This document shows, piece after piece, positions 18,295 to 62,561 of a stretch of DNA of 63,756 nucleotides. Position numbers and translations under genes: made by a program. The notes beneath the pieces are model-generated. The model was not told the DNA's origin. It saw nothing but the letters and a program-made list of their open reading frames with translations, and made no database searches. The stretch comes from Saccoglossus kowalevskii (lineage: Eukaryota; Hemichordata; Enteropneusta; Harrimaniidae). Where the stretch lies: NCBI RefSeq assembly GCF_000003605.2, contig NW_003106095.1, positions 8,720 through 72,475 of the forward strand, read 5' to 3'. Position 1 is the stretch's first letter. Each line of letters starts with the position of its first letter.

Positions 18295-19429
18295 AGCTGA
18301 ACTTCCAGGTCCTGGCAACATACAACGTTCACAAACAAAATATGTTACGTTTTTCTTTTGATGTATCATATACTTGTATATGTATTCGAGCTTTTCTGAA
18401 TTACGTCACACTTTATGTCGGGACGATATTGATATCCTAGAAGAGCCCTAAACTTTACTCCATAGATGCTCACTATTCAAGTTGTACTATAATGAACGCC
18501 AACACATGAGCAATGTCAGATGATGATAAATGCTATTTAAAGCAGACATACGATTAATAAGTGCCAACAAATGCCCGTCAGTAATTCAATCAGTCCTCAT
18601 TATTATTATTGTAATTACTATATTATTATTGTAACCATAACGAATTTGTGCTTCATTTGTATTTTCTAAGGCACATAGTGTAACGTGAATAAAGAAAGAA
18701 AAACACGCTAATGATACTCATAGTAAGTGCGAAATTTAATCTGTCTGTTCGAAGTTCGTTCGTAATGTGCACATTGCCGTATTTGGTATTCCGTCACACA
18801 GTAGAACGACCCACATAAAAACGTAATCGATTAGTTTCCATGTATGCCGAGTCACGCACTTAAAACATACTCACAATAAGCGAGCATACAATTATTTTTT
18901 AATAAAAATATATTTGATGATAGAAAATAATTTACTTTTTTATCACAATTAATAATTATTTGTACAAGTGTATTTGTCACATTAATTATTCTGGTTACTA
19001 AAATGTATGTTTGATAAATGCAATGAATGGGACACTCCGGGATCGGAATGGAACGTTATCGACATTATTTTGTTAAATAGAATAATTCGCATAATATACT
19101 ACGATTTAAAAAAAAAGACTTTCTATATAAGTCGAAAATAGACACATTGGCATGTATTTTTACGATTGTTCACTGCTTAATTCCTTTAATACACACAGTC
19201 GATTCTGAACATCGGCTGTGTCGTATTATGTATCCATGGTGATGTTTCTGTATCACTTACTCCATGTATTCTCGATGCAAAACGTATCAGCTGTTATCGT
19301 TTTCTGAATACAAATTCTTCTATGTTCGGCATTTGCAGCCGCAGACACCATTGAAGCTGACATAAAAACCTTGTATATTTTCAATCTGTGTGAGAATATT
19401 CCAGTACATGCAGGATTTCCTGTTGAACC

Positions 19430-20725
19430 ATGAGGATGTTGGTCAGGTACAGCGTTTGCATAGTTGCTTCTATTGTCACGTTTGTAGTGTTGTCCAATAA
19501 TGTGTCTGATGAGTCTACAAGTACGCGGCGATCTGCAACGAATGGACAAAGTGAGTTTCCTAGAGGGGACATGTCATTGAGTGATCTCAAACTGGATTCC
19601 ATTGATGCGAACGGAATGTTAAACATTCCTGCCCCGGAGTCTGTGGACTCCGATATGCCAATGTACCTCTTTCCCATATTTCGATACGGGACAGGGCCGA
19701 ATAATCAGTACAGAAGTTTGAAAGTCGCGATACTATTTGCTATTCACTTTAAGAGAACTTTGGTTTTAGGCCCGTTTTTTAACCATTTCCTTGTGAAGAG
19801 AGAGACGAGGCACTTCAACGAGACTTTTGATGTTGCTACGCTGAGCACACTGCTGCCCGTTGTATCTATTGAACAGTTCTACCATGACTGCAATGGAGAT
19901 GTCGCCAGAATTGTACACGGGAGACCGTTCATAAACAAACCAACGGACTACGAACACTATGAAGATAAATACAGAAAAACTCGGAGGCGATTAAATTTCA
20001 CTACAGGTATTTCACTTCCTGGCGTGGGGACTATTCCAAAATTTGATTACGGAAGCGCCCAAAAATATATAAACGCAAGCAAGAGTAATTGCCTCGGTTT
20101 CTATACTCCACTGACAATTGATTACGAGTTTGTGAACATGACGTCACCACTTACTATTGATGAGTATTATAAAATAGGAAAACAAATCGATGAACACATG
20201 GTCAGAGCAACTCCAATTCAACGAATGGCAGACGAGTTTAAATCCGTTATTTGTAACGGTGCATCTTATATTGCATTGCACTGGCGGGTCAATGATGATT
20301 TCATGAAGACGTGGTGTCCCACAATTAAAAGTAAAGAATGCAAATTGTTTCACGAGTTGAACCAAACTGGATCATTTATTGGCGAACAAATACAGAAGGC
20401 AATGACTCGTGTTAATGTTGGTTGTATCTATCTAGCAGCACCGCCCGACTCTTGGGATCTGATCACTCACCTGAGAGGGTTAGGCATAACCGTTTATACG
20501 CCCAGACAGACCATAATGGACTCTGGAAATAAGAAACTTCTTTTCCTCTACGAAGATAATTATATTCTTTCTCTTATAGAACAAGAATTGGCGCTGAGAT
20601 CAGTATTATTTATCGGTAGTAGTTGTTCATCGTGGACCAGTTTTGTGAAGCGAGAACGACAACTACGTAACCAGCGCACCACATATTTGAGCGAATTATT
20701 CGGCTTCCCTGAAACTAGTTGTTGA
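19430..20725 (+). CDS. O-fucosyltransferase-like type II membrane protein, single exon
   Basis: An uninterrupted 431-codon frame, the longest in the window. Residues about 5-24 form a hydrophobic segment (YSVCIVASIVTFVVL) after a basic start, fitting a signal anchor of a Golgi/ER luminal enzyme. Residues 76-110 read YLFPIFRYGTGPNNQ, then RSLKVAILFAIHFKRTLVLG. This matches the opening of GDP-fucose protein O-fucosyltransferase domains, where a G-x-x-NQ loop precedes a LA..L.RTL strand. ALHWRVNDDF (about residue 282) sits where the family has its conserved H-x-R motif. Several N-x-S/T sites support a luminal position. Substrate is unknown. The assignment to the POFUT-like superfamily is by motif only and no EC number is given. 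Lack of introns could mean a retrocopy or a naturally intronless lineage-specific family. The ATG at 19430 is the first in frame and gives the anchor at the very N-terminus. Confidence 0.75.
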   Translation: MRMLVRYSVCIVASIVTFVVLSNNVSDESTSTRRSATNGQSEFPRGDMSLSDLKLDSIDANGMLNIPAPESVDSDMPMYLFPIFRYGTGPNNQYRSLKVAILFAIHFKRTLVLGPFFNHFLVKRETRHFNETFDVATLSTLLPVVSIEQFYHDCNGDVARIVHGRPFINKPTDYEHYEDKYRKTRRRLNFTTGISLPGVGTIPKFDYGSAQKYINASKSNCLGFYTPLTIDYEFVNMTSPLTIDEYYKIGKQIDEHMVRATPIQRMADEFKSVICNGASYIALHWRVNDDFMKTWCPTIKSKECKLFHELNQTGSFIGEQIQKAMTRVNVGCIYLAAPPDSWDLITHLRGLGITVYTPRQTIMDSGNKKLLFLYEDNYILSLIEQELALRSVLFIGSSCSSWTSFVKRERQLRNQRTTYLSELFGFPETSC

Positions 20726-37274: not shown

Positions 37275-40200
37275 CTAATATTTATAAAACCCCTCTCCGG
37301 TCTTTCTGCCTAATTTTCCTTCATCAACAAATTTATTAAGAAGCGGACTTGGCACAAATAGTGGATGATCTGGAAATTCTTCATGCCAACCTGCAACGAA
37401 AATAAGCAGTTATTTATCATAAACAGCACTATGTTGTAATATCAATATTTCTCTCACCCCCAACATTACAGTGCAGTCCTACATAATACAATGTTAATAG
37501 GAATATAATGGAAGCCTTTAAAATGAATGCTTCTGAAGAGGAACTGAACATTAAAAAGCGTTTTCAAAAATATATATATTGGCATTTATAAAACATTCAT
37601 TTCTGAATTTGCTTTTCTATAACATTCCCTGTCAAACTATCAAATTCGAAACAGCTCTGCTGTTTTAGCCTTGCACTAATAAGGGCATGCATAGTTTTAT
37701 GAACATCATAATGGGAAAATTAAATAAACTTTGTTTACAATCTATTATAAGTGTCTCATTACATATTTAGATCTTATCACTAATAGAACCAAAAATTGAT
37801 AAGTCTGTTCCTATAATTTCACAAGTGGAACTAATCTAATAGAGGTCCACTAATCTAATAAAGGTCCACCCAAGATACACTTACACTAAATATCAAAACA
37901 ATTTGAGTAACGGTTTTCAAGAAGAAGTCAAAAATAGCATTTTCACTGAAAAATGTCACAAATAGTTCAAATCTAATAGAGATCCACCAATGGTACAAAT
38001 ATATCAAGTGTTAAGGCAATAGGAATAGAAGTTTTCAAGAAGTTAAAACATTTTTTACCAAAAATATTTATTAAAAGTAGTGACCCAAGATGACGATGGG
38101 CAATCACCCATACCAAGTGATCCATCTGTCATCTTTGTTGACAGAGGTTATAAAGTAGCAACCACACCCTGTTAGATACGTGTGGTATGTAATATATCCA
38201 TATTTGAAATGAGCTGCAGCTGACTTGTAACTAAAGCAAGAGTAAAATGTGCTGCATTTCAACCTGCACTATTTGTCAATTACAGTAATTCTCATGAAGG
38301 CACAAATTTTATGAAATATTTGTAACATTTACCCTGGAAGACTTCATTCAAACCCAAAAAATACACTTTTTCCGTTTTTGTCACGACTGATGCATTGTAA
38401 TTTGTCAAATTGTTTGCAATTGTCATTTGAAATTTACAAAACATTTAAAAATATTTTACGTTAAAAAACATTCATACCATCGTTAGCTGCAACACATAAA
38501 TAATCAACTTCAGTTTTAATACTTTGTCATAATATCTTACCGTCAATTATAAATTTGGTGATATCTAGCCCAACATAATCCCCTAATTCAAACGGTCCCA
38601 TTGGGTAGCCTGCCCCAAGTTTCATACCTACATCAACATCTTCTGGAGTTGAATCACCTAAGCAATGAAAAAAAATGAAGGTACTACTATGTATACATAC
38701 CATCCAAGATAAATTTACAAACATCCAGACCTACATAGTCAGCTAGTTCTATTGGTCCCATAGGGTAGCCAGCTCCGAGTTTCATGCCTGTGTCAATGTC
38801 TTTTGGGGAAGCATCACCTAATGCATTGAAAATGAAAGCGGAAGCAACATGGATGGTTATGGTGTATTCATATAAAGCAGCAAATTAAAATGTCTGTGGG
38901 TGGGTAAAATAAATGAGTTATACCAAATATTGAGTTTTAATTATTGCATATGGGTACAATGATCAAGGTATACCAAATATGTCATTACCAGTACTTCATA
39001 CTGTGTCCTAATTATTACATATGGGTCAATGAACTAGTTTTACTAAATATGGCGTCTTAATTATTGCATTTGGGGATGATGAACGAGATATACCAAATAT
39101 GTCATCACTTCATGTGGGTCAATGAATGAGTTATGGCATGTTAATTATTATGACAACATGCATGGAGAATGTAGATGTGTGCAAAGCAAAATAATCCATT
39201 ATGAAATTGAACATATACAAAATAGAACCCCCTCCTTTTTGTTTGGGGATATTCTCTTCACATGAACAAACGTACTGCCCCTACACCTATTTATAGAGTT
39301 CAGGATAAATTAACTTGCTCTTATTAAGAATGGTTTGTCTAGTTTTTAAAATTGCAACAGGGGAAAAATATATAATAGTCAAAAATTGATCTAAAAATCA
39401 CTAAGCATGCTACTAAAAGATCACAAAAAAAACGACAATCCAGAATGAATGTGCAGCCAGAAACATTGCCAAGCAGAAAACCACCTTTATATTTGATGGC
39501 TTAGGAAATTGACTAGTTTAGTATTGCATGAATATGGTATTCTGTATTGTATTTAATCTTTCAGATGACATAAGTAGTCTTAATCACAAATAAATTTTGT
39601 TCAATTGTTTTTTCCCTGTTGCTATCTAAAAACAAGGGGGTAGTCAGCACAGGCAGGAAGTGAGACCTAGACAACGATAACACGCTAAAAACGTGAAGGT
39701 CTGATGTATACGCAGGTGACAACTCTTCTACTTTAAAATCAAATAAAAAATGACATCAGTTGTTCAAAGTCCTGAAAACAGAAATGTTGACCAAGCTGAC
39801 TACTCACTCTAAATGTATCAGTCCGCTATTTCAAAACCAGTTGCTTTTCACTAAATTAATCTTCCACTAACACATATATAATGCTTGGTTATTCTCTTAT
39901 CATATTTAATGAAACAGCTTGAAATACAACCACCCTATCCCTTGCAAAAAATTATTTCAAAAAAGAGAGGATTATTTTCATGTAGTCCTGGTACAAATAT
40001 CTATATCCAATTTCCTACCTCGCTCCACCATCCTTACGGCTTCCATCATGTAAGGTACCAACAAACGATTCACAATGAACCCAGGCGTGTCCTACAAAAA
40101 ATGCATATTTATTAGGTCAGTTTTCTTATGCAGTGATATGGTTAATTAAACATTCTTCGTCACCAAATAACAATCCACCTGCTTGAAGCTTGTCCAAAAT

Positions 40201-43200
40201 TCCAGTGCGTTCAATCAGCCATTCACACCAATTCGATCACACCACACCAGTATTTACCGACTGGCTGAAGCTGAAGCTGGAGGTTTTATTCATTTCAAGA
40301 TTTTGTTGGTCACATTTAAAATCATCAAAGGTACTGCTCCACAATATTCAACTTGAATATTTCAAGAACTTTGCTCAGCCATTAAGTTAAGATTGGGTCT
40401 TCAATGTAGTAAATTTACTTAAATCATATGGTCAAAGAGATTTTCCTGTTTGTGCATCACTATTGTGAAACCAGTTTTATGAAATTTAAAAACTTGTTTG
40501 TACCATGCACAGAGGTATACAAATTAGTGCATTTTGTTATGAAAACTTTTAATAATATGTATCACACACCCAATAAAGTACCCACAATTTAATATTCTCT
40601 GTATGGAAAAGTGGTAGCATATCCATTAGAATTTCAAACAACTATTACTGATGACATTATTATATGACATTATTATATGACACCATTACACTCACCTTAC
40701 AATTGACTGGTACTTTACCCAACTTCTTACAGTAATCAAACAAGGTATCAAATGTGTTATCATTTGTATTAGACGTGCGTACAACCTGCAATATCAGTAG
40801 ATGATTGTTTAGTTTAAGCTTTTCACTACCAGTTCTCTCTTTTCATCACAAATTCACAAAATAGTCCTGTTTATAGTCTGCACTTTCCTTCAGAAGATTG
40901 ATATAAAAGAAGCCAAATTTTTTGTGTCTGTTGGCTCCAAAATTAGAGTTCATTTCCAAAAATATTGAAGAATATAAGAAAAAAATGCTGAAAAATTTGG
41001 CGGAGGAAGTCTGGTGGTGAAAAGGTTGATGTATTATAATCATAAGAAACTAAATTTGTGTCATATTTTCAATCTTAACTAAAAAAATATTCATGCAAGA
41101 TAACCTGCAATGAAACTTGAAGAGTCTATAATATAAAACATGTACGATTCAACATTGTAAGCTTCAATTAATCGTTGCCATTATTTATTTTTATGTCCGC
41201 ATGACTGCAATTACTGTTTTTTTTTTGAATGTTGAAAATGCATTAAATGCTTGAACTTTCTCATTTGTATTTCTCATACATTTGCTTGAATGTATTGGAA
41301 TATTCATTTTTACATCTTAAGGAAAGAAATGAAAAGTTCAATAATGGTCAAGATGCTTATTGACATTGCAAAACTATAAAACACTTATAATTATTATCAA
41401 TCAACTTGAAGCTAAATTGCAGCTGGCAGCCTGGATATTTCATTTTGCTAAGTGTATGCTGTCGTACCTCCCACACACAAATAACAAATGTTGTAATATT
41501 AGATTCATTAGAGTTATTTTATCTCACATTGTTTCATTTCACTCAGTCTATGTTATGTGTGTACATCAACAGTACAGAAAAGAAACCCAGGCATCACATC
41601 ACATCGAATCACTTGCAAGCAATTATATTTTTTTTTCTTTTTACACTTAAGTCAGAATATTGCTGAAAATAAGATACTCCATTCCAGGCAAATCGAGCTA
41701 AGACTAATTGCTCCTCAAATCCAAAAATTCATGAATATAAATCTATGTGAACGTGAGCAATACATGCAGGCTTGCATGAAATAAAGTGAAAATTCTTGAT
41801 GAATACTAGATTTGTTGTGTCATTGATGACACAATTAATCCCAGATTTGAAACAGATAATTAAATTATTTACATATACTTTGAAAAATGATGCAAAGGTA
41901 ATAAGAAGCTGAAGCGATGCTGTAGTGAAAACAAGCAGTCTCTCGACTGAGATAGAACCACTGTTATCAATACACATTTCATTTAGAGAATTGAAGATAT
42001 CATCATGAAATGAACAAATCTGAGGACTACCCCAAGAATCTATGTTGCAAATATGAAAGCATTTGGTTTAACTGTTTTGAAAAAGAAGACAAAAATGTGA
42101 AAAGTTGACGACATACTACAGACTACGCCGGACAATCAGTAATATGAAGAGCTCTGTGTTGTTGACAAAGTCGACAGCGGAGCTAAAAAGCCAAAGCTTT
42201 GGCTACAGTTGTACTTTACCAACCATGCTACTGGTGATCCACTGCAGTTTCACCCTGTTCAACTTTCCATTAATCATACAACAATGTTCAGTAGTCTAAT
42301 AAACTACTTGTAAATATGGACATCTCTTACCTCAACAAGTTTCATCATGGGTACCGGATTGAAGAAATGCAAACCACCAAATTTCTCTGGTCTTTTTGTG
42401 ACTTTGGCCATCTCTGAGATTGATAAGGAAGACGTGTTACTGGCAAAGATTGTACTCCTGTAAAAAAATATACAACATAAATTATGAGGTTATTCACAAA
42501 ATACCAGAATTTACGTCTGAGTGCATTGTATGCTTGGGCATGATTCTGTGATTATTTCCTTTGTTTTTTCACTGACCAGGCGGAAAGGTAAACAAGCAGC
42601 GTATCGGCTGAGATAGCTCCGCTGTTAGCAATGCACATTTCAATTAAAGAACTGAAGACATCATTAGAAAATGAACAATATGAATAGTATCAAAGCAATC
42701 AGACTTACAGTTTTTAACAAGAAGTCGAAAATATCACTTTTTACCAAAAATTACAAAAATATTCACCAAAATAAATTAATTAGAGAATTGAAGATATCAT
42801 CACAAAATGAACAAATCTGAGAGAGTTCCACATGTAGTACCTATATATGTAATATCAAAGCAATCGGACTTACAGTTTTCAACAAGAAGTCGAAAATATC
42901 ACTTTTTACCAAAAATGGCAAAAATATTCACCAAAATTAGAGAACTGAAGATATCATCACAAAATGAACAAATCTGAGAAAGGTCTACATGTAGTATCTA
43001 TATATGTAATATCAAAGCAATTGAACTATTGATTTTTAACAAGAAGTCGAAAATATCACTTTTTACCAAAAATTACAAAAATATTCACCAAAATTAGAGA
43101 ATTGAAGATATCATCACAAAATGAACAAATCTGAGAAAGGTCCACGTGTAGTACCTATATATGTGGTATCAAAGCAATTGGACTTGCGGTTTTTAACAAG

Positions 43201-46200
43201 AAGTCGAAAATATCACTTTTTACCAAAAATGACAAAAATATTCACCAAAATTAGAGAATTAAAGATATCATTACAAAATGAACAAATCTGAGAGAGGTCC
43301 ACATGTAGTACCTATATATGTCATATCAAAGTAATTGCACTTGCGGTTTTTAACAAGAAGTCGAAAATATCACTTTTTACCAAAAATGACAAAAATATTC
43401 ACCAAAATTAGAGAATTGAAGATATCAACATGAAATGAACAAACCTAAGAGAGGTCTACCCAAGGTACATATACACCAAGTATCAAAGCATTCAGGCTTG
43501 TAGTTTTCAAGAAGAAGTCGAAAAAGTAAAACATTGACACGGACGACGACGGACAATCACTCATATGATAAGCTCCGCTCGACAAAGTCGACAGCGGAGC
43601 TAAATAAAAGTACAATAATATGACAAACAACCACACCCTCCCCGTGGCTTACGTTGCGTATGGAAGTTATTTTCAAGAGTCTTATGTTGTAACCTGTGGC
43701 CATCCGCGAGTGAAAGTAGAGCAGAATACACCGCATCTCGAGTGAAAATAACTTCCATACGCAACGAAAGCCACTGGGAGGGTGTGGGGTTCTGTTATTA
43801 TTAGTCGCCGCTCAGATGCAGTCCGAAAACAGGAACTTATGTTTTGACCTCTGTACGTCCGTGTGTCTGTGCTTCCGTGCGTGCGTACGTCCGAACCTGT
43901 ATCTTAGAAATGCCTGGACCGAATGGCAGCCATTTTTGTACCGAAAATCATCAAAATTAAGCATTTCTCGGCTCTTTACAGATGGATTTTGTTCAAACTT
44001 GGTATATAAGTTAGACATTATAGGACAACTGATGCACGTCATTTTGTTTTTCAGATAAAATTCAAGGTGGCCGACTGGCGGTCATTTTGTTTTAATGAAT
44101 GTGGTTGTAGCGCCATATCTCTGACTTGCTTTGACTGATTATGTTCAAATTTTAAATATTCATTATACATTCAGGGTTCAAAATACTCGGGTGCACACTG
44201 CACTATGCACATAGATTATTAACTAGTGCAAGTAAACTCAAAATCAAATGTGCACGCTGTGCATGTAGAAATTAACACAACATTTTCTCATTATATTCAC
44301 TAAGCCTAAATTAGTTTCAACCAATATTGTAAAAAAACTCAAAAGCACAAGTGAAAAAAATCAAATTCGTCCGTGATCGCATCGATCGAGAACCCGGAAG
44401 TAAATTGGTAGCGTACTCGCGTACATTGTGAGAGTACTTTGAGTCTCGCGTGACCTCAGAACAGCATACAGATTGAGTATTTCGACCCCTGACATGCAAC
44501 AAACCGAGATGGAATTTAGGACAGGGAACCCGATTGTCCATTAATATGTTCCAAGATAGTGTTACTCCCTGGCAACGCGCGTCAGTGTAGAACGAGTGTC
44601 ACTGTCTGTGTGAAAAAAAAATAATGAGACGTCTAATGTGAGTCACTGTCAGAATAAATAACTCATGGACATTTAGTTGGGACCACGACAGAACCAGAAC
44701 TTGAACTGGACGACTATGATACACAGTTTATGTTGAAATTATAAGTTCCACCACAGAATTGTGCATTGGCAAAATTGCTGTGCAACTGCGGTACTCCACT
44801 GACGGGGTGACTTTAATCAACAGCGGTCATCTCTGAGCTGCACATTACAACTTCGTTTGTGATGTTGCTTGGTGGTCGTGGATTGACTGAGTCTTGGTTA
44901 CCGGTTGAAATGTTGCTCATTTGGCGTTGGTAATCTTTATTTGGAACTGAGTAGTGCCGCAACGTCGCCAGTAGAAACAGATGGATTTTTTTGTGGTCTT
45001 GATGAGAGTGGGCACACACGTTATTGATTATATTCTCCCCAAAAAAAATGACAGCAATTTTAGCGTCAATATAATTTCTTACACCAAATGTTGCATAATG
45101 CAGAACATATTTTTGAAAAATAAATATACAACATGTAACACTACATGTAACAAAACTCTTCCGGAAAAAACCAGATTTCAATGGCAATAAATAGATGTAG
45201 TATTGCATCATGTTCTAAAAATCATAGAGAATTCTGGGTATGTGTTGTGCCAAGCATACAAGAGAGACCCACAGAATTTACTTTCAATTTTAACAATTTT
45301 TTTTTATAGGTTTAGTGAATACAGTTCAACCAAGTGTGTTCTCCTCAGATTATACTGTAAAACATACTAAATGTGTAAAAGTCTTACTCTTTTGCTACTT
45401 TGTCCAACTCTGAAAACAACTTCTTCTTGATTCCCATATTTTCTATAATTGCTTCTATGACTAAGTCTGTATTAGACACTGCTTTGGAACTGTCCGTTGT
45501 TGTAGAAATCTTTGACATGATATCACTAATATAGGCTTCACCTTTCTGAGTACATAAAGTATGAAAAAAAAGGAAAATTAAATCTTGTCTTTTTCCGGAT
45601 CCATATTACAAGTAGCATTCTTATTTTAATCAAGGTGACAATCATTGTTTGCAAATTAACTTCAACTTTGTACGACTTACACTTGGGTCATCTGCAAACT
45701 TCTTTTTTACAACCCTTTGTAAACTCTTATTAATAATAGCACAAGATTTATTGAGAATTTCATCATTCTGGTCAACCATTGTCACTTTATAACCTGCCTG
45801 GGCTGACACCTGTAAAAACGAACAAAGAACTTAATATATATACTATTTAAAAATTAGTTAACATTAAGCTCAAATTGTTATTGACACCAACATGAACTAT
45901 GCATTGTTTGGTTTGTTAGCGACCAAATAAATGGTTGAATTCACTTGCAGTCAGATTTGAGAATGCTGGATAATCTACAAAGTTTTAGAATTTGAATAAA
46001 TTTCTCTACACTGGTATTTCAAGCACAGCTTTGGATACGAATAGACGTTATGATAAATGGTCTATTTTTTGCAGATTATGTGGTGCTCACTGCACCAAAC
46101 TAAATACGATACTAAATATAATAAACAAATTCTGTAAATTTAAAAAAAAATGGCAGTCAATGAAAATAATTCCGACGTTCTAATCATAAACAAAAGTGTG

Positions 46201-49200
46201 AACTCCAGCTTATCAATAAAAGAAGCTTCTGAATATGAATATCTGGAATTTTTGGTTCACAAGGTGCCTCTGATCATACTCACTGTAAAAAACTAATTGA
46301 ACAAGCCATGCATAGCACAGTCCCTGTTAATTATGAAGTAGACATACAGAGAATGAATCTTGGACTTCTTACAATGGAAAACCGATCAAAAATTATCAAC
46401 TGAAATATCACAAACGACTGTGCCAGATGATTGAAATTACATTTATTAATCTAATTAATGAAAAGTAAATGAAGATTCCACAATAAGTGACAGGAAGTGT
46501 GGGATTGGGTAAAACGTATTAACCATGAAAGACAATCATTAAAATAGACAAATCAGAGATTTAAAACTTAGCACATTATACTAATGGGACAAAGGGAAAA
46601 CTATGGCGTGTAATAAAACACACTTATGACCACATTGAGAGTAAAATTACATTTGGAGATGTTGAAACTGAATACTTTGACCAGAAGGAGGGTCTTAGGC
46701 AAGGTCGTGTCCTAGCTCCAATGCTATTTGCAATTTATATAAATGAATTCAAAAAAAATCCTGAATGATTCATCATAACAATAAATAATATACTCATTAA
46801 TGGGTTGTTCTTCGCTGATGATGTGGCCCTTATTGCCCCAAATGAGGAACAGCTAAAATCTATGTTAGAGATTGCAAACTATGGAAAATGTCCATTAATG
46901 GGGAAAAATTTAATATCCTGATAGTAAATAAAAGAATAAATAAACATAAGGAATGGTATATTGGAGATTTAAAAATTAAAGAATCTAATGAATACAAATA
47001 TTTAGGCTACTGGTTCACCAGAAACCTGTCTGACCATACTCACTGTGTAAAACTAAGTGAAAAATTCAACAAACTATTCCCAGTAATGAAAGCAACCCTT
47101 GGAAATCATGGAAACATTAATAGGGTAGATTATGGGTTGTCACTATGAAATCATGTAATACGCCCTTCATTAGAATATGCTGGTGAAATAGTAACGTCTA
47201 GTTTATCTGATATGGAGAGTTTGGAAAAACTGCAAAGAACAGTTGGAAAATTTATACTGAAATGTCAGCGAAACACTGCAAATGAAGCTGTTCTTGGTGA
47301 TCTTGGGTTGAATACAATATAGATATAATGAGTTTAAAATATTATAGGAGACTGAATAAAATGAAAGAATCTAGGTGGACAAAAGTTACTTTTACCAAAT
47401 TAAATGAGCTAAACAAAGAAACTGAATAACATAGAGGTTACATATTTTGGAACTGGCTAAGATATACAGATGATGTAATAAAATATGTCAAAATAAACAA
47501 AAAACAGTTTACAAACTTAACTGATAAAAAACTAAAAACATTGGTTCTGAACCATGATGAATCCAAGTGGAGAGAAGATATGAAGTTAAAATCAAGCCTT
47601 AATTTTAATTATAATAGAAAATTCAAAACTAGCTTGAAAAGTGAGAAATATCTTCAGTCAATAAATAAAAGGGCCACTTTAAAGGAGCACAGCTAAAATT
47701 CAGAGCAAGATCATGTACTCTTGGGTTAGCATATGAAAAAAGGAAATGGAAAAATAATAGTGAAGATGACATAATTTGTCCATGTTGTTAAAAAGATGAA
47801 GAAACTCTCGAACATTTTATTTTGCAATGTCTAAGTTTTAAAATAAAAAGGGAAAACTTAATGTGTGAAATAAAATAAATGTTATTGAAGATGAAAGAAA
47901 CAAATTTATCTGATAACTTCCAGCAACTGAATAACGAAGAGTTAGTATGCTTCCTTCTGGGAGATACCACTCAAGGTTATTACAAAGAAATATGTTACAC
48001 CATAGACAAACTTATGAAAGAATTTTTAGTTGATGCCATGGATGTTAGAACACCATTTTTAAACTAATAAGTAGATTGTATTGTTATTTTTATTGTACTA
48101 ATATTAATTTTGTTATATGTTATTTTTCATGATCTATAACAATATTTCTTGTACTTATTTTAAAAAATGTATCTTTAATTTTGCAGCTCCAGTGAGCCAC
48201 TGCTTTATAAGGGTAGCAACAAATAAATAAATAAATAAATAAATACTACATGTATTAAACAAGCAGCCTCTCAGCTAAGATGGCTTCGCTGTTAGGAATG
48301 TACATTTCAATTAGAGAATTGAATATATCACCACGAAATGAACAAACTGAGAGAGGTCCACCTGTAGTACCTATATGTACATGTATAATATCAAAGCAAT
48401 CAGACTTGCGTTTTTAAACATGAAGTCAAAAATATCACTTATTACCAAAAATGACAAAAATATTCATCTAAATTATAGAATTGAAGATATCATAACAATT
48501 TGAACAAATCTGAAAGGTCAACTTGAGGTCAAACAAAGTCAAACAGTGTAATCTCTTTGGTTGGCAAATTTGATAATATATATAGATGACAGAAATCCAG
48601 GGGGCCTTATGTTTGGTGGACTAAGTCTGAACCAAAGACAATTTTTAGGTTTTTTTCCACTCACTAATATACAGATGATGTAAATCCAAAGAGACATTTT
48701 TAATACTGATATGGGACATAAATGTGTATATTAGACAAGGGATTTTTTTTCTGTTTTATCTGAGGGGTAAAGTTTTCCCAAATAACATCTGTATACTGTT
48801 ATGTATTTTATTGGCTTTAGTTATATTTGTAACTTTTTCTTTTTTTCTGTCATTATTTTATATATATACATGTATTACCTTTACTGTATTGATCAATACC
48901 CCATTGTAGATACGATTTCAATCAAGTTATTATTATTATTAAAAATAATGCAGGTTATTACTTGAGAATCCTAGGGTTGATTATTGTCTAAGGAGGTACC
49001 AAAATAGGCCTTTTTACTTGAAAACCATCTGTAGGGGGTTGGTAGATAGAAACTGCAATGACCCATTTAGCGGCAGATGTGTATTACCGGCCCGACATTG
49101 GCAGGTATTAGTTTGTGTCTTGTTCATCTGTTTGATTGAAAACAATGTACAATAATTTGCTGCGCACCCACTTTATTCTGCTATAGCAGGATCCATGCAT

Positions 49201-50978: not shown

Positions 50979-52808
50979 TGTAACATGCAGATAGACACAC
51001 ATAGAGACACGCATGTATGTCATTCACTGCGTTCTTTTATTCCAAGTTCATACTATGGTTAAGATAACATAAAACAAAAACAAAACAAAAACCCTGACTA
51101 GAACAACTCTAAATCGAGTGAAATGCAATGCTCTCCTCAGCTTCAGGTCGCCATTCACACAGCTCGAGCTCAGAAAAACATGAAATGGTTTTCAAACTTC
51201 CAGAGACTGATAAAGATTGAAACTGGGTGAAATTGCAGACAGCAAAAGAAAAGTGTTTGCAAACAGAAGTTTACAAGATGGAGTCTGTCATGTCACATGA
51301 CCTCGGCAAAAGAAGTGTTTTCTCAAAATTACAAAATACATTGAAATAATACATTACATATTCTCTACAGAAATTAATAATAAAAATAAAGAATTTACAA
51401 TACATCTCAAAGGTAGAAATATGAATATTTAAAGAAAATATAAATAACACTCAAGGGTGAACAGCGCCCCCATACACTCAAGAAGGGTAAACAGCACTCT
51501 CACACACTTCCCTGCTTGAAGGTTGGTGCCCTCAACAACCAAACGATGAATAGAAATTACAGAACAGAAGTTTTGTAATAATCAAAAAGATTCATGATGA
51601 CATGACCAGTTAACAACTAAACCAACATGCACTGGATCCACAAAGACGATCAAATAGAACAAATACAGTGGCTCCAAATGCAGATTGCGTTACGCTGTTG
51701 TGAAAGGGTCATTATCATACTAACACTTAAACATGTTCATTGAACACAAAGAAGAAATTACAAAGTACAAAGTTCAANNNNNNNNNNNNNNNNNNNNNNN
51801 NNNNNNNNNNNNNNNNNNNNNNNNNNNNNNNNNNNNNNNNNNNNNNNNNNNNNNNNNNNNNNNNNNNNNNNNNNNNNNNNNNNNNNNNNNNNNNNNNNNN
51901 NNNNNNNNNNNNNNNNNNNNNNNNNNNNNNNNNNNNNNNNNNNNNNNNNNNNNNNNNNNNNNNNNNNNNNNNNNNNNNNNNNNNNNNNNNNNNNNNNNNN
52001 NNNNNNNNNNNNNNNNNNNNNNNNNNNNNNNNNNNNNNNNNNNNNNNNNNNNNNNNNNNNNNNNNNNNNNNNNNNNNNNNNNNNNNNNNNNNNNNNNNNN
52101 NNNNNNNNNNNNNNNNNNNNNNNNNNNNNNNNNNNNNNNNNNNNNNNNNNNNNNNNNNNNNNNNNNNNNNNNNNNNNNNNNNNNNNNNNNNNNNNNNNNN
52201 NNNNNNNNNNNNNNNNNNNNNNNNNNNNNNNNNNNNNNNNNNNNNNNNNNNNNNNNNNNNNNNNNNNNNNNNNNNNNNNAATGTAACATGCAGATAGACA
52301 CACATAGAGACACGCATGTATGTCATTCACCTGCGTTCTTTTATTCCAAGTTCATACTATGGTTAAGATAACATAAAACAAAAACAAAACAAAAACCCTG
52401 ACTAGAACAACTCTAAATCGAGTGAAATGCAATGCTCTCCTCAGCTTCAGGTCGCCATTCACACAGCTCGAGCTCAGAAAAACATGAAATGGTTTTCAAA
52501 CTTCCAGAGACTGATAAAGATTGAAACTGGGTGAAATTGCAGACAGCAAAAGAAAAGTGTTTGCAAACAGAAGTTTACAAGATGGAGTCTGTCATGTCAC
52601 ATGACCTCGGCAAAAGAAGTGTTTTCTCAAAATTACAAAATACATTGAAATAATACATTACATATTCTCTACAGAAATTAATAATAAAAATAAAGAATTT
52701 ACAATACATCTCAAAGGTAGAAATATGAATATTTAAAGAAAATATAAATAACACTCAAGGGTGAACAGCGCCCCCATACACTCAAGAAGGGTAAACAGCA
52801 CTCTCACA
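50979..52808 (-). mobile_element. LTR retrotransposon with near-identical LTRs around an assembly gap
   Basis: LTRs at 50979-51504 and 52282-52808 start TGTAACATGC and end ACTCTCACA on the plus strand. They appear to differ by only one indel (CACTGCG versus CACCTGCG). The flanks are ATTG on both sides (50975-50978 and 52809-52812), a 4-bp target duplication. Read on the minus strand the LTR contains AATAAA close to its 3' end, and a purine tract (CAAGCAGGGAAGTG) abuts the 3' LTR. These features set the orientation to minus. Only about 270 bp of internal DNA is visible before 502 N, so no gag or pol can be read. The superfamily is unassigned. Confidence 0.85.
51778..52279. other. Assembly gap, 502 N, inside the LTR element
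   Basis: Covers nearly all of the internal region of the retrotransposon. The real missing length may differ greatly from 502. Confidence 1.
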
Positions 52809-54972: not shown

Positions 54973-57900
54973 TCATTTGTTGTATTTGTAAAATCCTTCT
55001 CCTGTTTTTCTTCCTAATTTTCCATCACAAACAAGTTTATGAACCAAGTCACTTTTCCTAAACAGTGGATCAGAGGGATATGAATCGTGAAAACCTGCAA
55101 GAAGAAAAATTGTAAAGAGAATTAGGTCTGTGATTTCTCAGATGTGTACTATCAGTGATTTCATGACAATATTAAACTAAGAATATAACAGTGAAATGAT
55201 TTGAAAGAACTGTCAACAAACTTTCATGTTTTATAATTTGAGAGCAATCATGACCTCAGCCATTTTCTTTCCAAATTTGAATTTACCTTAATTTACTGGA
55301 TCAAACTTATGATTCATTAGAATCCAGTGCCCTTAACTTACTATTCATTAGAATCCAATGTCCTTAACTTAGTATTCATTAGAATCCAGTGCCTTTAACT
55401 CACTATTCATTAGAATCCAATGCCCTTAACTTACTATTCATTAGAATCCAGTGCCCTTAACTTACTATTCATTAGAATCCAGTGCCTTTAACTCACTATT
55501 CATTAGAATCCAATGCCCTTAACTTACTATTCATTAGAATCCAGTGCCCTTAACTTACTATTCATTAGAATTCAATGCTCTTAACTTACTATTCATTAGA
55601 ATCCAGTGCCCTTAACTTACTATTCATTAGAATCCAATGTCCTTAACTTACTATTCATTAGAATCCAATGCCCTTAACTTACTATTCATTAGAATCCAGT
55701 GCATTTAACTCACTATTCATTAGAATCCAATGCCCTTAACTTACTATTCATTAGAATCCAATGTCCTTAACTTACTATTCATTAGAATCCAATGCCCTTA
55801 ACTTACTATTCATTAGAGTCCAGTGCATTTAACTCACTATTCATCAGAGTCCAGTGCCCTTAACTTACTATTCATCAGAGTCCAGTGCCTTTAACTTACT
55901 ATTCATTAGAGTCCAGTGCCCTTAACTTACTATTCATTAGAATCCAATGTCCTTAATTTACTATTCATTAGAATCCAATGCCCTTAACTTACTATTCATT
56001 AGAGTCCAGTGCCCTTAACTTACTATTCATCAGAGTCCAGTGCCCTTAACTTACTATTCATTAGAGTCCAGTGCCCTTAACTTACTATTCATTAGAATCC
56101 AATGCCCTTAACTTACTATTCATAAGAATCCAATGACCTTAACTTACTATTCATTAGAGTCCAGTGCCTTACCATACTATTCATTAGAGTTCAGTGCCCT
56201 TAACTTACTATTCATCAGAGTCCAGTGCCCATAACTTACTATTCATTAGAGTCCAGTGCCCTTAACTTACTATTCATTAGAGTCCAGTGCCCTTAACTTA
56301 CTATTCATTAGAGTGCAGTGCCCTTACCTTACTATTCATTAGAGTCCAGTGCCCTTAACTTACTATTCATTAGAGTCCAGGGCCCTTAACTTACTATTCA
56401 TTAGAATCCAATGCCCTTAACTTACTATTCATTAGATTCCAGTGCCCTTAACTTACTATTCATTAGAATCCAATGCCCTTAACTTACTATTCATTAGAAT
56501 CCAATGCCCTTAACTTACTATTCATTAGATTCCAGTGCCCTTAACTTACTATTCATTAGAATCCAATGCCTTTAACTTACTATTCATTAGAGTCCAGTGC
56601 CCTTAACTTACTATTCATTAGAATCCAATGCCCTTAACTTACTATTCATTAGATTCCAGTGCCCTTAACTTACTATTCATTAGAATCCAATGCCCTTAAC
56701 TTACTATTTATGACGTACTCCATGACTTCCAGTCCAATATAGTCAGCTAACTCAAACGGCCCAATCTTATATCCAGCTCCAAGTTTCATAGCAGTGTCAA
56801 TATCTTTGAAGGAAGCATCACCTATTTATTTAAGCAGAAATTTTATTATATCAGTGGCGCCCTCTAGAGGTTCAAGTTTCATAGCAGTCAGTATCCTTGA
56901 AGGGAGCATTTCCTATTGAAGGTCTCATTTCATCAATTAGTCAGTGTTCATAGTTAGGCAATGGATTTGCTTTCACTGCGTTTAATCTGAAACACAATAT
57001 ATGAGAGCATACTTCAATAACGTCAACTGTTAGATGTGTGTGTACATGTAGCTTTGTTTATTGACAAGTAAACAACCCTTGATTAGACACTTCAAAACTG
57101 GCTGCTTTTCTGAGAATATCAAAGATAGAAAACGTGACAAATCTGTGTGTTCTGTTTACATCGATTTTGTAGGAGTTTGAGCTGGCCAACATGTGTTTAT
57201 CTGGCCAGAATGTTATCACAACAATTGTTATTCAACAAATTAAAACAATATTTTGATTTTTCTATCCTGTTTTCACCCAAATGCTAATATTTCCATCTAT
57301 AAAGTTCTAATTGGTGGTATGAGCCATGAAGCAGAGAAGTTTATTATAGCAGTGGTGCCCTCTAGTGGTTCAAGTTTCATAGCAGTGTCTACACATTGAA
57401 GGAATAACCAACCATTAAAGTAAAGATTTACAAACACCCTATACTCTGTTATGATTCAAAATAAAAAAACGATTGGGCTTTTTGCTGGCCAAAATTCAAT
57501 TTTTACCAAATTCAATAACGTCAAAATGAAGATTAAGTTTGCAACATTCTGAAAAGTGTCTGATTTGCTAAAATTAATCGGGAAATTGAATATTATATAT
57601 GAAATCATGTTGTATGTATGGGTGTACACACCTCTTTCAGCCATACGACATGCTTCTAGCATATACGGCACCATTAAACGGTTAACGATAAATCCTGGTG
57701 TGTCCTATGATGCACAGAATATATGAATTAATTTATATTGATTGTACTCATGTCATCACTTGGGAATCAAAATACAGACACAATGTGAAATACATTACTG
57801 AACTGAATATAATTGATAGATGATACAATTCAAGACAATGTAGCTACTGATAATACAATAGGTGATTTCCCGTTCAACTGTGAGATCTCGCGAGATGCAT

Positions 57901-60900
57901 GAAAGATTCGCGTCGAACATCTGCCACAAAAATCGAACATTTGATTTTAAACTCGAATTTCTTTATTTCGTAGCTCACATCGACCGGCCTATCTTCGAAT
58001 ACCCTCACTTAATGGAAATTGTCTATCATCAAATGTGTACAGCACATTATTAGGCATGGAAATGCCCCCCAAAATATTTTCGCATTTGTCGAATCCCACG
58101 GGATGTTTGATGCCACTACGACGCTATAACCTTTGTTTGTCCTGTTTTTACGTTTGATTTCATGCATAACGCAGTGAATGGAAAATGGTCTATTCAGGAC
58201 AATGTTGCTACAAATGATACCATTCTGGAAAATGTTACTTTTTAGGGGTGGGGGGTGTCGGTGGAGCACTTAAATGCTAGCGAGTCTCTGCCACACGCAT
58301 CAGGATGAAGCTAACACATACACTCACCTTACACTTCACTATCTCTTTGCCAAGCTTTGTACAGAATTCCATTAATATATCTACAGTTCTTTGGGATATC
58401 ATGTTGTGAGTGACCAACTGTTCAATGAGACATCAATAAAAGTCAGAAATTAATTTCTAATTATTCTAAATAAAATCAAAGCAGATATTATTCATAGTGA
58501 AAACAATGATACACAAGAGAATTGAAAACAATGTATAGATGTAAATACCTCAACTATCTTCATGACTGGCACAGGACAGAAGAAGTGTAAACCACCTATT
58601 TTTTCTGGAAAGCCAGTAACACTGGCCATTTCACCAACTGACAATGAAGATGTATTGCTAGCAAATACAGCAGACCTGTCAACAGAGAAGCAAATATAAA
58701 AGTGCTTGAACGAACTTACATTTTAATCTATTTAATCTCTTTTCATCCTTTGAAATGGATGATAATGGATACATTGTACACAAAAAAAGAAATACGTGAT
58801 AGTGACATGATAGAGGAAAAACACAGAGAAAATCAAAGAAAACATCTGTGAACCAAATTTCAGTGAAATTTGATGATTATGCACATTGTGCAAATTTGGC
58901 AATTTAATCAAAAACTAATGCTGTGTTCCCAGGCACTAATTGGTTATTGAAATTATGCAAATTAGACATAGATTTCATTCCCAAATTAATTAGGTCTGTG
59001 TATTATGTACCAAGTTTCGTTATAATGTGAGGATTACCGGTAATTCTTAAAAAATTGGTGTACCAAGTTTCATTGAAATGAGTAGATCAGTACTGGTACG
59101 AGAAAAGCCAAACATTAACTAATCATTATGCAAATTAAATGATTAATATCCACAGATTTTTACCTCAAACTAATTAGATCTGTGCATAGACCTAGAGCAT
59201 CTATGTACCAAGTGACATAGCAATGTAATGATTGGTACTTGAAATATTAGTGAAAAAGCCAAAAATTTACAAATTATGCAATTAAAATTATCAGGTCTGT
59301 ACACTGTCAAATTACATCTACGTACCATGTTTCATTTTAATGTGATGGTTAGTACTAGAGATATACAGTGGAAAAGCCAAAAATTTATTAATCATTATGC
59401 TAATTAGATAATTAATATGCATGGCTTTTTACTCCAAGTCATATCAGATCTCCGCATTGTTCCAAAGCATCTATGTACCAAGTTCAAAATCCGAAGGGGG
59501 GTTCTTTAAATAACATGGAACAGCTAAAAATTAGTTAATTATCATGCAAATTAGGTAATTGATATGCCATTATTTTAAACCAAAATCTAAACCAATCTAC
59601 GCATTAGCCCAGAGCGTCTATGCATAAAGTTTCATCAAAACCCAACATATGGTTCTTGAGATATCAGTGGAAATGACGGACGCACACACACGTACAGACA
59701 CACTAACTGCAAAGACTCCCATTGTTTTGTTGAGTCAAAAAAATTTAAAAATTAAAATGGCAGAAAATCCAAAAATTTAGAATGTCATTAAGTGACATCA
59801 ATATCTTGGAAGTGTCTGTACTATCCCAATTGTGCATGATTATTACAAATGCCATATATGGATGTTTTCTGTGAATATCCCATTATGATATAGAAAGATG
59901 GTCACACATCCCTGTCAAATATGAAAAGTAGGTGCAGGAGAGACAATTAATTTTGACATACGCCGATGCCATGCTATTGGCAAGAACAGCATTTAAATGA
60001 CACACATGGAACTCTGTGGAAAGTTGAAGCCAGCCTGCACAATAAGTTTCATCACAATTATGAGTTTCATTCTTGGTAGATTATTTTTTTTTGAATTACG
60101 GCACTTACTTACTTTTTTTAAATATTTTTTGTGCCAGGCGACAGTTCCAGACATTGGGTATCACTGTTGTCTCTCCTGACATTTTTTTTTTGTATGTGCA
60201 AATTGCAAGTGCTAGTGACGACACATAGGGCATTTTGCCACAGAAGTCATATTCATGTTTGGGACTACATGACAGGGCAGTGTGGCCATCTCTCTGTCAA
60301 ATGGCAATTTGTAATGCGCTATCCTGGCGTCAACCAGACTCGATCGAACACAAACACCTGTGGACCTTAACCAAGGTTCCCCCAAAGTCGAATTCGTTAG
60401 TGAATGAATTTCGACCAGTGGAATTGGCCTTCCCATTGAGTCTGTGGCACACTCACCCAGGGTAGGGGTCGACCCTTTGATGTTCAACCTAAGGTAGGAT
60501 TTGAACTTGGGTCTACAGAACATGAGTCTGATGCGACAACCACTATGCTACCAGTGACCGGTAGCATAGTGGCACTTACTTCTTAATATCTGCATTGTTT
60601 AGCTCAGTAAACAGTTTTTTTTTCACTGACATATTTTCGTAGATGGCTTCAACAATCATATCAGCATTGGTAACAGCATCTATAGTGTTTGTACTCACTG
60701 ATATATTAGACATAACACCCTGAATAAATGTTTCACATCTCTAGAAATATACAAGATTAATCATATGAAAAGAATAAATGAATGAATAAATAAATTAATG
60801 AATAAAAAATATTTGTTTAATCAAGTAAAAGCACATATATACTTAAATATTTGGTGTTAAATAAATATGAAATTAATTAATATACAAATGAACCCATTAA

Positions 60901-62561
60901 ATCACTCTTCAATATTACAGAATTGGCAGAATATAGTTCATAAGATATTTTGTAATCTCAAACTAAAATTAACTTAAATTGTATAGTTCATCCATATTAA
61001 GCATATTTCAACAAAGTTTGAAACCAGTAGATAGAAATGTGAATGACAAATATTGAATCCAATTATAAATAAAAATGAGCTGAATATGCCTGATTTTTGT
61101 TACATTCTCTGCCTGCACAAAACTTACAAAAGTGTGAATCTCTGCCTCAATTTTATCAATCATCATTCTTATGTTTGGATGAAATACAGATACATTGTAG
61201 CATGATTATAAACAGATAACAAAGGTAGTTTATAGTTATAGTTTACAAAGAACTTTTATTTTTTTACTTCTCGCCCCAAATTTCACTAGGTACTCATACC
61301 CAAGTATTTATATTAAATTTGACATACAATCAGTACTTCAATACTAATTTTAAAAATTGCTGAAAAAAGATTAGCTTTTCAATTTTCTAAAAGTGAACTT
61401 ACACATGTTTTCTGTATTTCCCGTCAGATCATTTTTGTTATCATTATGTAGTCAAAATATGGTTTGAAAATATTTTTATTCTGAAATATCATTCCAGTGG
61501 GCTTTGGAATAACATAAACAAGGCCTCATTGGAAATGCATTTAACTTTGTGGTATTTTAATGGACATGGACAAAATGGACAAAAACAGTCTACTTTGCAG
61601 AGGGTAATCAGTCTTGCATCCATAGGGCCTCTCACTCATAACCATGCTCTTCTAGTGCTCCCCATTCCAATTGTATATACCCCTCTTCAGGGCACGTATA
61701 GTTATTTGGAGGGGCATATTGAATTACATTTGGGGGGCTGGATTTTTAGGGTTAGGCTTTAGGTCAGGGGTGAGGGGGTCTTAAGTAAATTAACATGAAA
61801 ATTCAGCGAAAATATAAGTGATAATATTGAAATGAGAAAAAATTGTGATTTATTTTCATGGTTGTGCCAATAGCCAACTACTCTTCACATGTGGCTGTCC
61901 TGTTTTGATATAAAATAATACATATATAATACTTACAGTTGGTTCTGTTTTAAATTTTTTATTGGCAACAGCCACCAATCCTTCCCTGATATCATTCATA
62001 GATTTATTTAACCGCTCCTCTGATTGGTCAACCAAGGTCACATGGTATCCCACCTGGGCAGAGTTCTATAGAAATGAATGTTATTACTAAAATTAATTGA
62101 TATTTTGGAAATTTGTTTGGTTGATTAAAAACAGTCAGATTAAATTTGATGTAGGTATAGGTTTATTTGTTTTTTTTAATTTTCATATTTTTTTGTCTAT
62201 TTATTAAATTCCCATTAAAATTACACATTAACTTTGATAGGGTTAGCTAATATCCCATGAAATAGCATCCAGTTACCCAATGTACCATCACCAGAGGCTG
62301 CGGCACAAAAGTTGCATTGAGGGGGGCATTTCGAAGGGCAAATTTTGCTGACATACGTAGCTTAGTTTAATGACATCTCCAGGGAAAACTTTGGGCAGTT
62401 TAGCTAATTGTCCATAACATTCTATAAGGTTTACTGAAGCCTACCTGAGCTATGCCGGAGCCCATAAATCCGCAACCAATGACAGTGACATTGTTGACAG
62501 CAGCAGTTTTCGCTGCGCGAACAGACAAGCTTCTGATGATAACTTTAGTAGCAAGAGCCAT
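54973..62561 (-). CDS. L-3-hydroxyacyl-CoA dehydrogenase, divergent paralogue B
   Basis: Exons (minus strand, 5' to 3'): 62445-62561, 61937-62065, 60580-60740, 58549-58675, 58328-58417, 57632-57704, 56705-56821, 54973-55094 (stop TGA). All are GT-AG with the same phases as paralogue A; about 311 aa. The N-terminus ([20 protein letters not shown]) looks like a mitochondrial transit peptide. [13 protein letters not shown] binds NAD; VDQ, NTSS, the catalytic His and Glu ([15 protein letters not shown]) and GFIVNRL are present. Unusually, the conserved Asn of HFFNPVP is Cys here, and exon 7 reads GYKIGPFEL where A and human HADH have GYPMGPFEL. This suggests altered substrate handling or activity while the fold is kept. 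All exons are open with intact splice sites, so it is not an evident pseudogene. The start is the ATG at 62561; an upstream in-frame ATG at 62741 lacks transit-peptide character. Confidence 0.9.
55312..56704 (-). repeat. 31-bp minisatellite carrying a 5' splice site in each unit (HADH B intron 7)
   Basis: About 45 tandem units of 31 bp. On the gene's sense (minus) strand each contains AATAGTAAGTTAAGG or the variant AATAGTGAGTTAAAGG, so nearly every unit has a GTAAGT or GTGAGT donor. The first unit on the sense strand is the authentic exon-7 donor: coding ends at 56705 and GTAAGT begins at 56704. Variants alternate at a few sites (AATCCAATG, AATCCAGTG, GAGTCCAGTG). The array makes up most of the 1.6-kb intron. 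Confidence 0.95.
56868..56920 (-). pseudogene. Decayed exon-7 fragment 1 in HADH B
   Basis: The minus strand carries a degraded 5' part of exon 7: after TTCAATAG come GCTCCCTTCAAGGATACTGA and CTGCTATGAAACTTGA, matching the real exon (GCTTCCTTCAAAGATATTGA, CTGCTATGAAACTTGG). It lacks the 3' part and donor. It lies about 50 bp upstream of the true exon 7. Confidence 0.7.
57368..57405 (-). pseudogene. Decayed exon-7 fragment 2 in HADH B
   Basis: The minus strand has TTCCTTCAATGTGTAGACAC then TGCTATGAAACTTGAACC, again the 5' third of exon 7. Both fragments are followed on the sense strand by AACCNCTAGAGGGCNCCACTG-like DNA, so they came from one duplicated segment. Confidence 0.7.
57857..58194. 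mobile_element. MITE family C, copy 2 (HADH B intron 5)
   Basis: Homologous to 53809-54177, with left end AATAGGTGATTTCCCGTTCA and right end GAATGGAAAATGGTCTATT. It lies between exons 5 and 6 of HADH B. Confidence 0.75.
58860..59730 (-). repeat. Degenerate satellite-like repeat, reversed copy (HADH B intron 3)
   Basis: Reverse-complement relative of 15912-17620. ATGTACCAAGTTTCAT, GGAAAAGCCAAAAATT, AATCATTATGCAAATTA and TCTATGTACC recur. The head at the right side (GTGTGTGCGTCC, AACTGCAAAG.CTCCCATTGTTTT) matches the 15.9-kb head inverted. Confidence 0.65.
60125..60558 (-). mobile_element. tRNA-derived SINE (HADH B intron 3)
   Basis: On the minus strand it begins GGTAGCATAGTGGTTGTCGC (A-box-like) and has AAGTTCAAATCCTACC (B box), then a unique body shared with 6990-7375. 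It is in sense orientation with HADH B. Its head lies next to the exon-3 donor. Confidence 0.7.
60540..60572. repeat. Perfect 13-bp hairpin directly after the HADH B exon-3 donor
   Basis: CCACTATGCTACC (60540-60552) and GGTAGCATAGTGG (60560-60572) are exact inverses with a 7-nt loop. The hairpin starts 7 nt into the intron, immediately after GTAAGTG. One arm is the SINE head; the other is an inverted copy of it. Confidence 0.85.

What the first reader, a model, noticed from the sequence alone, without database searches (positions are those of the whole stretch)
55312..56821. Minisatellite that multiplied a 5' splice site about 45-fold
Intron 7 of HADH B is mostly a 31-bp tandem array whose first sense-strand unit is the genuine exon-7 donor (A|GTAAGTTAAGG). 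Each later unit presents another GTAAGT or GTGAGT in the same context. Seen in sequence: the array starts exactly at the exon edge. Read on in frame, exon 7 runs into TAG at the second donor, so use of any decoy would truncate the protein. Inference: the array could act as a U1-recruiting platform, a splicing enhancer or a length-dependent regulator of exon-7 definition, or it may simply be tolerated because the first donor always wins. A minisatellite born from a splice site is, as far as I know, unusual.
Basis: partly seen in the sequence, partly recalled or inferred. Interest (0 to 1): 0.9.

Follow-up and report, generated by a model that had tools for sequence, protein, structure and literature searches.

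The report
Tandemly copied splice site in intron
In an acorn-worm-like animal, the start of an intron in a fat-burning gene has been copied 45 times in a row together with its splice signal; this kind of repeat, called a mirage and known from lancelets, turns up at other genes of the same genome too, so splicing presumably has to keep choosing the right copy among many look-alikes.

Summary
On the minus strand, exon 7 of an intact 3-hydroxyacyl-CoA dehydrogenase gene (HADH B) ends at 56705. From 56704 to 55311 run 45 head-to-tail units (44 of 31 bp, one of 30) headed by the donor GTAAGT; 41 of 45 keep GTRAGT, 44 of 45 keep GT. Any decoy would meet an in-frame TAG.

It is not unique. Tandem repeats spanning exon-intron boundaries are published from lancelets as "mirages" (PMC3087553, PMC3902484; passages). 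This genome looks like a Saccoglossus-like acorn worm, by mitochondrial gene order and code. In it I read 30 arrays carrying MAG|GTRAGT: 14 of 30 begin at a recognisable exon end, 11 of 30 show no exon, 5 of 30 start in assembly gaps. Ten of the 14 copy 14 or more bases of the exon end, e.g. ATP-citrate lyase, PSMD13, UBR5, DNAI3, RRP1. No background rate was measured.

Best reading: a minisatellite born at a real donor, grown into the intron and tolerated because exon definition selects the first donor. A U1-platform role has no positive support here. No transcripts were available.

The parts
56705..56821 (-). HADH B exon 7 (117 nt, [39 protein letters not shown] + first base of Ser codon)
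   Evidence: tblastn, reading frame joined over 8 exons, PDB alignment
55311..56704 (-). 45 tandem units (44 x 31 bp, 1 x 30 bp), 41 of 45 headed by GTAAGT or GTGAGT
56699..56704 (-). the presumed working 5' splice site ATA|GTAAGT, first unit of the array
   Evidence: phase-1 position matches exon 8 and the exon 7 donors of HADH A; no transcript evidence
55266..55310 (-). possible degenerate units at the distal end of the array (weak)
   Evidence: 16 and 17 of 31 matches to the consensus at two offsets, where other offsets reach 14
54973..55094 (-). HADH B exon 8 (last coding exon, acceptor CTTCTTGCAG|GTTTTCACG)
54973..62561 (-). HADH B gene, 8 coding exons: 62561-62445, 62065-61937, 60740-60580, 58675-58549, 58417-58328, 57704-57632, 56821-56705, 55094-54973
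   Evidence: 936-nt open reading frame, boundaries placed at GT and AG; Pfam 3HCDH_N 7.6e-52 and 3HCDH 3.5e-33
56873..56917 (-). partial, diverged copy of the 5' part of exon 7 and its acceptor inside intron 6
   Evidence: self-comparison, 85% over 47 columns
57371..57404 (-). second partial copy of exon 7 sequence in intron 6
   Evidence: self-comparison, 89% over 35 columns

Best explanation
It is a 'mirage'-type minisatellite. A short segment spanning the exon 7 donor was duplicated in tandem by slippage or unequal exchange; the copies then multiplied on the intron side only, because the exon side is held by the protein. Splicing tolerates the 44 later donor-like units: the first donor is the one bounded by a normal 117-nt exon with its own acceptor and is transcribed first, so exon definition commits to it. 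Rare use of a decoy gives a transcript that stops at TAG and would be removed by nonsense-mediated decay. Shown: the array, its register, the intact reading frame, the stop, the recurrence at other exon ends in the same genome. Inferred: the duplication mechanism, the choice of the first donor, the decay.
For: Real donor in register with the array. Intact HADH B frame. Fourteen sibling arrays of 30 examined start at an exon end; ten of these 14 copy 14 or more exonic bases with 0 of 1000 shuffles as good, e.g. ACLY 33 of 34 nt, UBR5 26 of 26, RapGAP-like 25 of 25, DNAI3 27 of 28, PSMD13 31 of 37, RRP1 14 of 14. The exon has a PDB or Pfam match at E below 0.001 in ten of 14. Where I searched exon plus following array residues, homology runs 2 residues past the exon end in PSMD13 and GABA-B receptor 1, 6 in DNAI3, and stops at or one before it in RRP1 and UBR5. 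Published lancelet mirages are suggested not to disturb splicing (PMC3087553 passages). Donor lesions at units 13, 18, 25 and 44 of 45 show no trend.
Against: For HADH B itself the exonic part of the unit is short (6 of 7 nt; shuffle p 0.008 and 0.018; 2 of 64 other GTRAGT contexts in the window score as well), so birth across the exon edge is likely but not proven for this locus. A similar 31-bp unit on contig C202 is not next to a recognised exon. With equal-strength competing donors the intron-proximal site is often favoured in test substrates (recalled, not looked up), which would predict use of the last unit. No transcript, no second haplotype.
Confidence: 0.72

Rival explanations
1. The array is a functional splicing element: many U1 binding sites downstream of a weak -1 A donor raise local U1 occupancy and help define exon 7, with length-dependent effect.
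For: The exon 7 donor ATA|GTAAGT lacks the -1 G; 36 of the 44 later units have exactly its hexamer GTAAGT and the same computed U1 duplex energy (-5.6), and 4 more are GTGAGT at -5.7. 41 of 45 units keep GTRAGT, and the hexamer varies less than the rest of the unit on average (0.027 against 0.056).
Against: The low variation is not exceptional (10 of 26 windows, itself included). Arrays of this kind also stand behind donors computed as strong (-10.7 to -12.2 kcal/mol in 13 siblings), which need no help; but those were found by strong donor words, so this says only that weak donors are not required.
Confidence: 0.1
2. The decoys are a poison switch: regulated use of later donors gives TAG-containing transcripts and lowers HADH B output.
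For: In-frame TAG at the second donor; seven of 15 loci, HADH B included, stop by the second donor.
Against: Eight of 15 loci have no stop in the first unit, four of them with units that are multiples of three, so a stop is not a shared design feature.
Confidence: 0.08
3. A dispersed minisatellite whose unit happens to contain AATAGTRAG came to lie against exon 7 and its first unit was recruited as donor.
For: Contig C202 has a 31-bp array sharing the core AATGAATAGTRAG (score 17, 7 of 300 shuffles as good). None of the 7 ATAGTRAGT arrays that I fetched shows an exon at its start (2 of the 7 start in N).
Against: The C202 likeness was picked out of a whole genome and is uncorrected. The intron position and phase agree with HADH A, so the donor position is old. 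Other genes show arrays clearly built from their own exon ends.
Confidence: 0.12
4. Assembly artefact (false expansion of one or two units).
For: Several sibling arrays start in N runs, so array lengths in this assembly are uncertain.
Against: Units differ from one another (mean identity at lag 1-12 about 92%), no N inside this array, and the same pattern recurs at unrelated genes.
Confidence: 0.03

Closest known systems
Mirages of lancelet genes (Adh3, TnC, globins Gb6 and Gb9, PGBD5)
   Same: Minisatellite-like tandem copies of an exon-intron boundary, units carry splice signals, gene apparently intact (PMC3087553 and PMC3902484, passages read).
   Different: Host with a hemichordate-like mitochondrial genome; 45 units here against 3 and 6 reported for the two haplotypes of BflGb6; only 7 exonic bases in the HADH B unit; splicing and length polymorphism untested here.
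Ordinary intronic minisatellites
   Same: Tandem repeat of similar units inside an intron.
   Different: The first unit holds the presumed working donor.
Intron gain by tandem duplication of AG/GT proto-splice sites (Rogers model, as cited in PMC3087553)
   Same: Tandem duplication across a splice junction multiplies splice signals.
   Different: No new intron here: an existing intron was filled.

Membership tests
Mirage minisatellite | Tandem repeat that includes an exon-intron boundary | tested here: met
   Array register starts at the exon 7 donor; exonic share small, 6 of 7 nt. Much clearer in ten of 14 sibling loci.
Mirage minisatellite | Repeat units carry splice signals | tested here: met
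   41 of 45 units GTRAGT, 44 of 45 GT
Mirage minisatellite | Regular splicing of the mRNA despite the copies | not testable with these tools
   No transcripts; the reading frame is intact if the first donor is used
Mirage minisatellite | Length instability between haplotypes or cells | not testable with these tools
   One copy seen in the assembly
HADH (short-chain 3-hydroxyacyl-CoA dehydrogenase) | 3HCDH_N and 3HCDH domains, catalytic His and Glu, intact frame | tested here: met
   the His and Glu of GLHFFxPVPVMKxVE are present (roles recalled), but the Asn after HFF is Cys in B
Lancelet genome (host) | GFP genes (recalled) and cephalochordate mitochondrial order | tested here: not met
   No GFP match (its control set is blank too, so weak); mitochondrial order with cox1 inverted, and AAA = Lys, fits what is said of Saccoglossus

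The most novel reading that the evidence does not exclude
5' splice sites are a recurrent birthplace of minisatellites in ambulacrarian and chordate genomes, so that dozens of genes carry long ladders of near-equal donors. Such genes are natural multi-donor competition experiments, and in-frame ladders (units of 30, 33 or 36 bp without a stop, as in DNAI3, UBR5 and TYW2) are a route by which exon ends grow into protein repeats.
Probability: 0.35. Interest if true: 0.75.

Novelty: new member of a known kind. Interest (0 to 1): 0.58.

Why it matters
If the first of 45 near-identical donors is always chosen, donor sequence alone cannot explain the choice, and these loci separate exon definition and order of transcription from donor strength in a natural setting. 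The recurrence at 15 exon ends (HADH B and 14 siblings) in one genome that does not look like a lancelet's suggests that mirages are a wider feature of deuterostome genomes than the lancelet reports imply, and gives a test bed with ladders of different length, strength and frame.

Tried and rejected
Host as lancelet: considered first because mirages are known there; dropped after the GFP search (weak) and the mitochondrial contig.

Unit as member of a dispersed family: unit compared with 14 other consensus units, two of them from one array. C202 scored 17 (7 of 300 shuffles as good), C993 scored 12 (0 of 300); neither corrected for the genome-wide choice; left open.

Selection on the donor part of the unit: variation 0.027 against 0.056 for the rest, but 10 of 26 windows (itself included) are as low; not taken as evidence of selection.

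Arrays with ATAGTRAGT: 7 of the 8 other contigs listed fetched (C1185 not); no exon recognised at any of the seven, and two of the seven (C446, C180) start in N; the listing was cut. Satellite-like arrays C1113 and C92 flooded their listings and were not examined, so CAG arrays with gaps of 31-46 and AAG arrays with gaps of 36-65 are not covered in full.

That check turned one of twelve negatives (C2126, RRP1) into a positive; Pfam on six further open frames gave nothing below 0.2. Some of the 11 remaining negatives may still hide a short exon.

So there is no measured background rate.

Full report
What is there. The window lies in an animal assembly of 572 Mb, contig C93. Two HADH genes stand in tandem on the minus strand. 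HADH B has eight coding exons that join into 936 nt without an internal stop; the protein hits both 3HCDH domains and aligns from residue 13 to 309, exon 7/8 junction included, with solved HADH. Exon 7 ends at 56705 in phase 1. The next base starts an array of 45 units, 56704-55311, consensus GTAAGTTAAGGGCACTGGATTCTAATGAATA. It fills 1394 of the 1610 nt of the intron.

Decoys. 37 units begin GTAAGT, 4 GTGAGT, and 4 carry a changed hexamer (GTAAGG, GTATGG, GTAAAT, CTAAGT). The computed duplex with the U1 5' end is -5.6 kcal/mol for the real donor and for 36 later GTAAGT units alike, and -5.7 for the GTGAGT units. So at HADH B nothing local tells the first donor from most of the rest. Reading on from exon 7 gives ten residues and then TAG at the second donor, so any decoy truncates the protein.

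Birth from a splice site. The last seven exonic bases ATAAATA match the unit's ATGAATA at 6 of 7 positions; a shuffle test gives 0.008 and, with the choice among the first units allowed for, 0.018. Two of 64 other GTRAGT contexts in the window score as well. For HADH B alone this is suggestive.

The siblings. I searched the whole assembly for three spaced copies of donor words. AAGGTRAGT with gaps of 5-35 gave nine arrays, GAGGTRAGT with the same gaps fourteen, CAGGTRAGT eight over two searches with gaps of 5-30 and, for GTAAGT alone, 5-35; one array (C2616) is shared, so 30 distinct arrays, all fetched and read. Fourteen of 30 begin at a recognisable exon end with an AG acceptor and an open frame (for C2511 an open frame only); 11 of 30 show no exon (C128, C850, C998, C1550, C1685, C1737, C2182, C2921, C3272, C4258, C4504); 5 of 30 (C166, C4506, C1169, C2826, C3783) start in N. 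The fourteen: C3228 ATP-citrate lyase (PDB 3.8e-28), C1646 PSMD13 (8.3e-17), C3162 UBR5 (1.7e-4; Pfam 6.1e-6), C2616 GABA-B receptor 1 (4.8e-21), C3943 DNAI3 (5.5e-26), C2126 RRP1 (Pfam Nop52 2e-10; PDB 4.4e-6), C4090 Rap_GAP (2.9e-11), C2447 TRM5-TYW2 (3.6e-6), C1608 TSP1_spondin (3.5e-6), C2476 SRA1 (1.9e-4), and four without a significant hit: C1734 and C1912 (none), C2511 (ANF_receptor 0.032), C3076 (WWE 0.36). The TYW2, TSP1 and SRA1 hits are below Pfam's curated cut-off for a whole protein, as may be expected of single exons.

Exon ends copied into the units, best among roughly the first eight: ACLY 33 of 34 nt, DNAI3 27 of 28, UBR5 26 of 26, RapGAP-like 25 of 25, PSMD13 31 of 37, TYW2 18 of 19, C1734 15 of 16, SRA1 15 of 16, C1912 15 of 17, RRP1 14 of 14, each with 0 of 1000 shuffles as good; TSP1 5 of 5 (4 of 1000); GABA-B 9 of 11 (33 of 1000); C3076 6 of 7 (130 of 1000); C2511 2 of 2 (248 of 1000). 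The three exonic letters of the search words favour a match of the last bases; matches of 14 or more go well beyond that. TRF copy numbers range from 2.4 (C1608) to 49.3 (ACLY, 41 bp) and 56.0 (C3076, 22 bp). So in ten loci the repeat was plainly built from the exon-intron boundary. HADH B belongs with them by position but is among the weaker cases by exonic sequence.

Strength. In the 12 loci where later donors could be lined up (HADH B included), the mean later donor is weaker than the first in 11 and equal in one (C1734); at SRA1 (0 of 10) and C2511 (0 of 18) no later donor equals the first, whereas at ACLY 35 of 48 and RapGAP-like 16 of 21 do (its walk counted two positions beyond the 45 units of HADH B). 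So relaxed decay of the copies is visible, and in some genes donor strength may help the choice.

Frames. Continuing the exon frame into the array, seven of 15 loci stop by the second donor (HADH B, ACLY, C1734, C1912, SRA1, C3076, RRP1), four have units of 30, 33 or 36 bp without a stop in the first unit and would add an in-frame repeat if that decoy were used (DNAI3, UBR5, TSP1-like, TYW2), and four shift frame (GABA-B, RapGAP-like, PSMD13, C2511) (C1734 has two open frames, both of which stop).

Against a designed function. At HADH B the donor hexamer varies less than the mean of the rest of the unit (0.027 against 0.056), but 10 of 26 windows, itself included, are as low, and lesions are spread along the array. 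These points favour tolerance, but say nothing direct about splicing, for which no transcript was available.

Host. The mitochondrial contig C4830 (17,037 bp) reads atp6-cox3-G-nad3-R-nad4L-nad4-H-S-nad5-cob ... nad6(-) ... nad2-L-K-V-nad1-I-cox1(-) ... cox2 (tRNAs by ARAGORN; cox1 by Pfam and PDB; the other protein genes named by eye), has tRNA-Lys with anticodon TTT, AAA at a conserved Lys and AGA at a conserved Ser of cob (the conserved residues recalled). The Rhabdopleura paper says that Saccoglossus kowalevskii differs from Balanoglossus by inversion of COX1 and transposition of ND1 or ND2, and has AAA = Lys (PMC3121625, passages).

Compared with what is known. Tandem duplications of exon-intron boundaries in lancelet globin genes, Adh3, TnC and PGBD5 are called or likened to mirages and are suggested not to disturb splicing (PMC3087553, PMC3902484; passages; the original Adh3 paper was not found in the library). 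The listings showed no report of mirages in hemichordates; the library holds open-licence papers only.

What remains uncertain: which donor is used, array length in real animals, the background rate at which arrays abut exons (no control set), and whether HADH B's array began inside the exon.

Noticed in passing
38541-38657 and 38701-38817, minus strand: HADH A carries two open 117-nt exon-7 versions (29 of 39 residues identical) only 43 nt apart, both with acceptor and donor: candidates for mutually exclusive exons forced by a too-short intron.
   Followed up: partly
42688-43524: 157-bp array, 5.3 copies, in a HADH A intron; related sequence at 41983-42187 and 48257-48519.
   Followed up: no
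50979-51504 and 52282-52808: 527-bp direct repeat, 99.8% identical, on either side of an N gap: probable assembly artefact.
   Followed up: no
19427-20725, plus strand: Single open frame of a GDP-fucose O-fucosyltransferase-like gene (Pfam O-FucT 1.1e-15).
   Followed up: no
L006 1303-4373 (contig C202): 31-bp array sharing the core AATGAATAGTRAG with the HADH B unit, about 5 kb beyond what looks like the last exon of a PLOD-like gene (name by eye), no exon seen at its start.
   Followed up: partly
L053 (contig C1550): 42-bp donor-word array lies antisense some 35-40 nt before the acceptor of an SLC24-like exon (name by eye).
   Followed up: no
L054 (contig C2126): The RRP1 array unit (GTAAGTTGAGGGG...TTTAGAATAAATA...) looks like the HADH B and C202 units by eye, although it copies its own exon end; chance or a shared liking for such sequence was not tested.
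   Followed up: no
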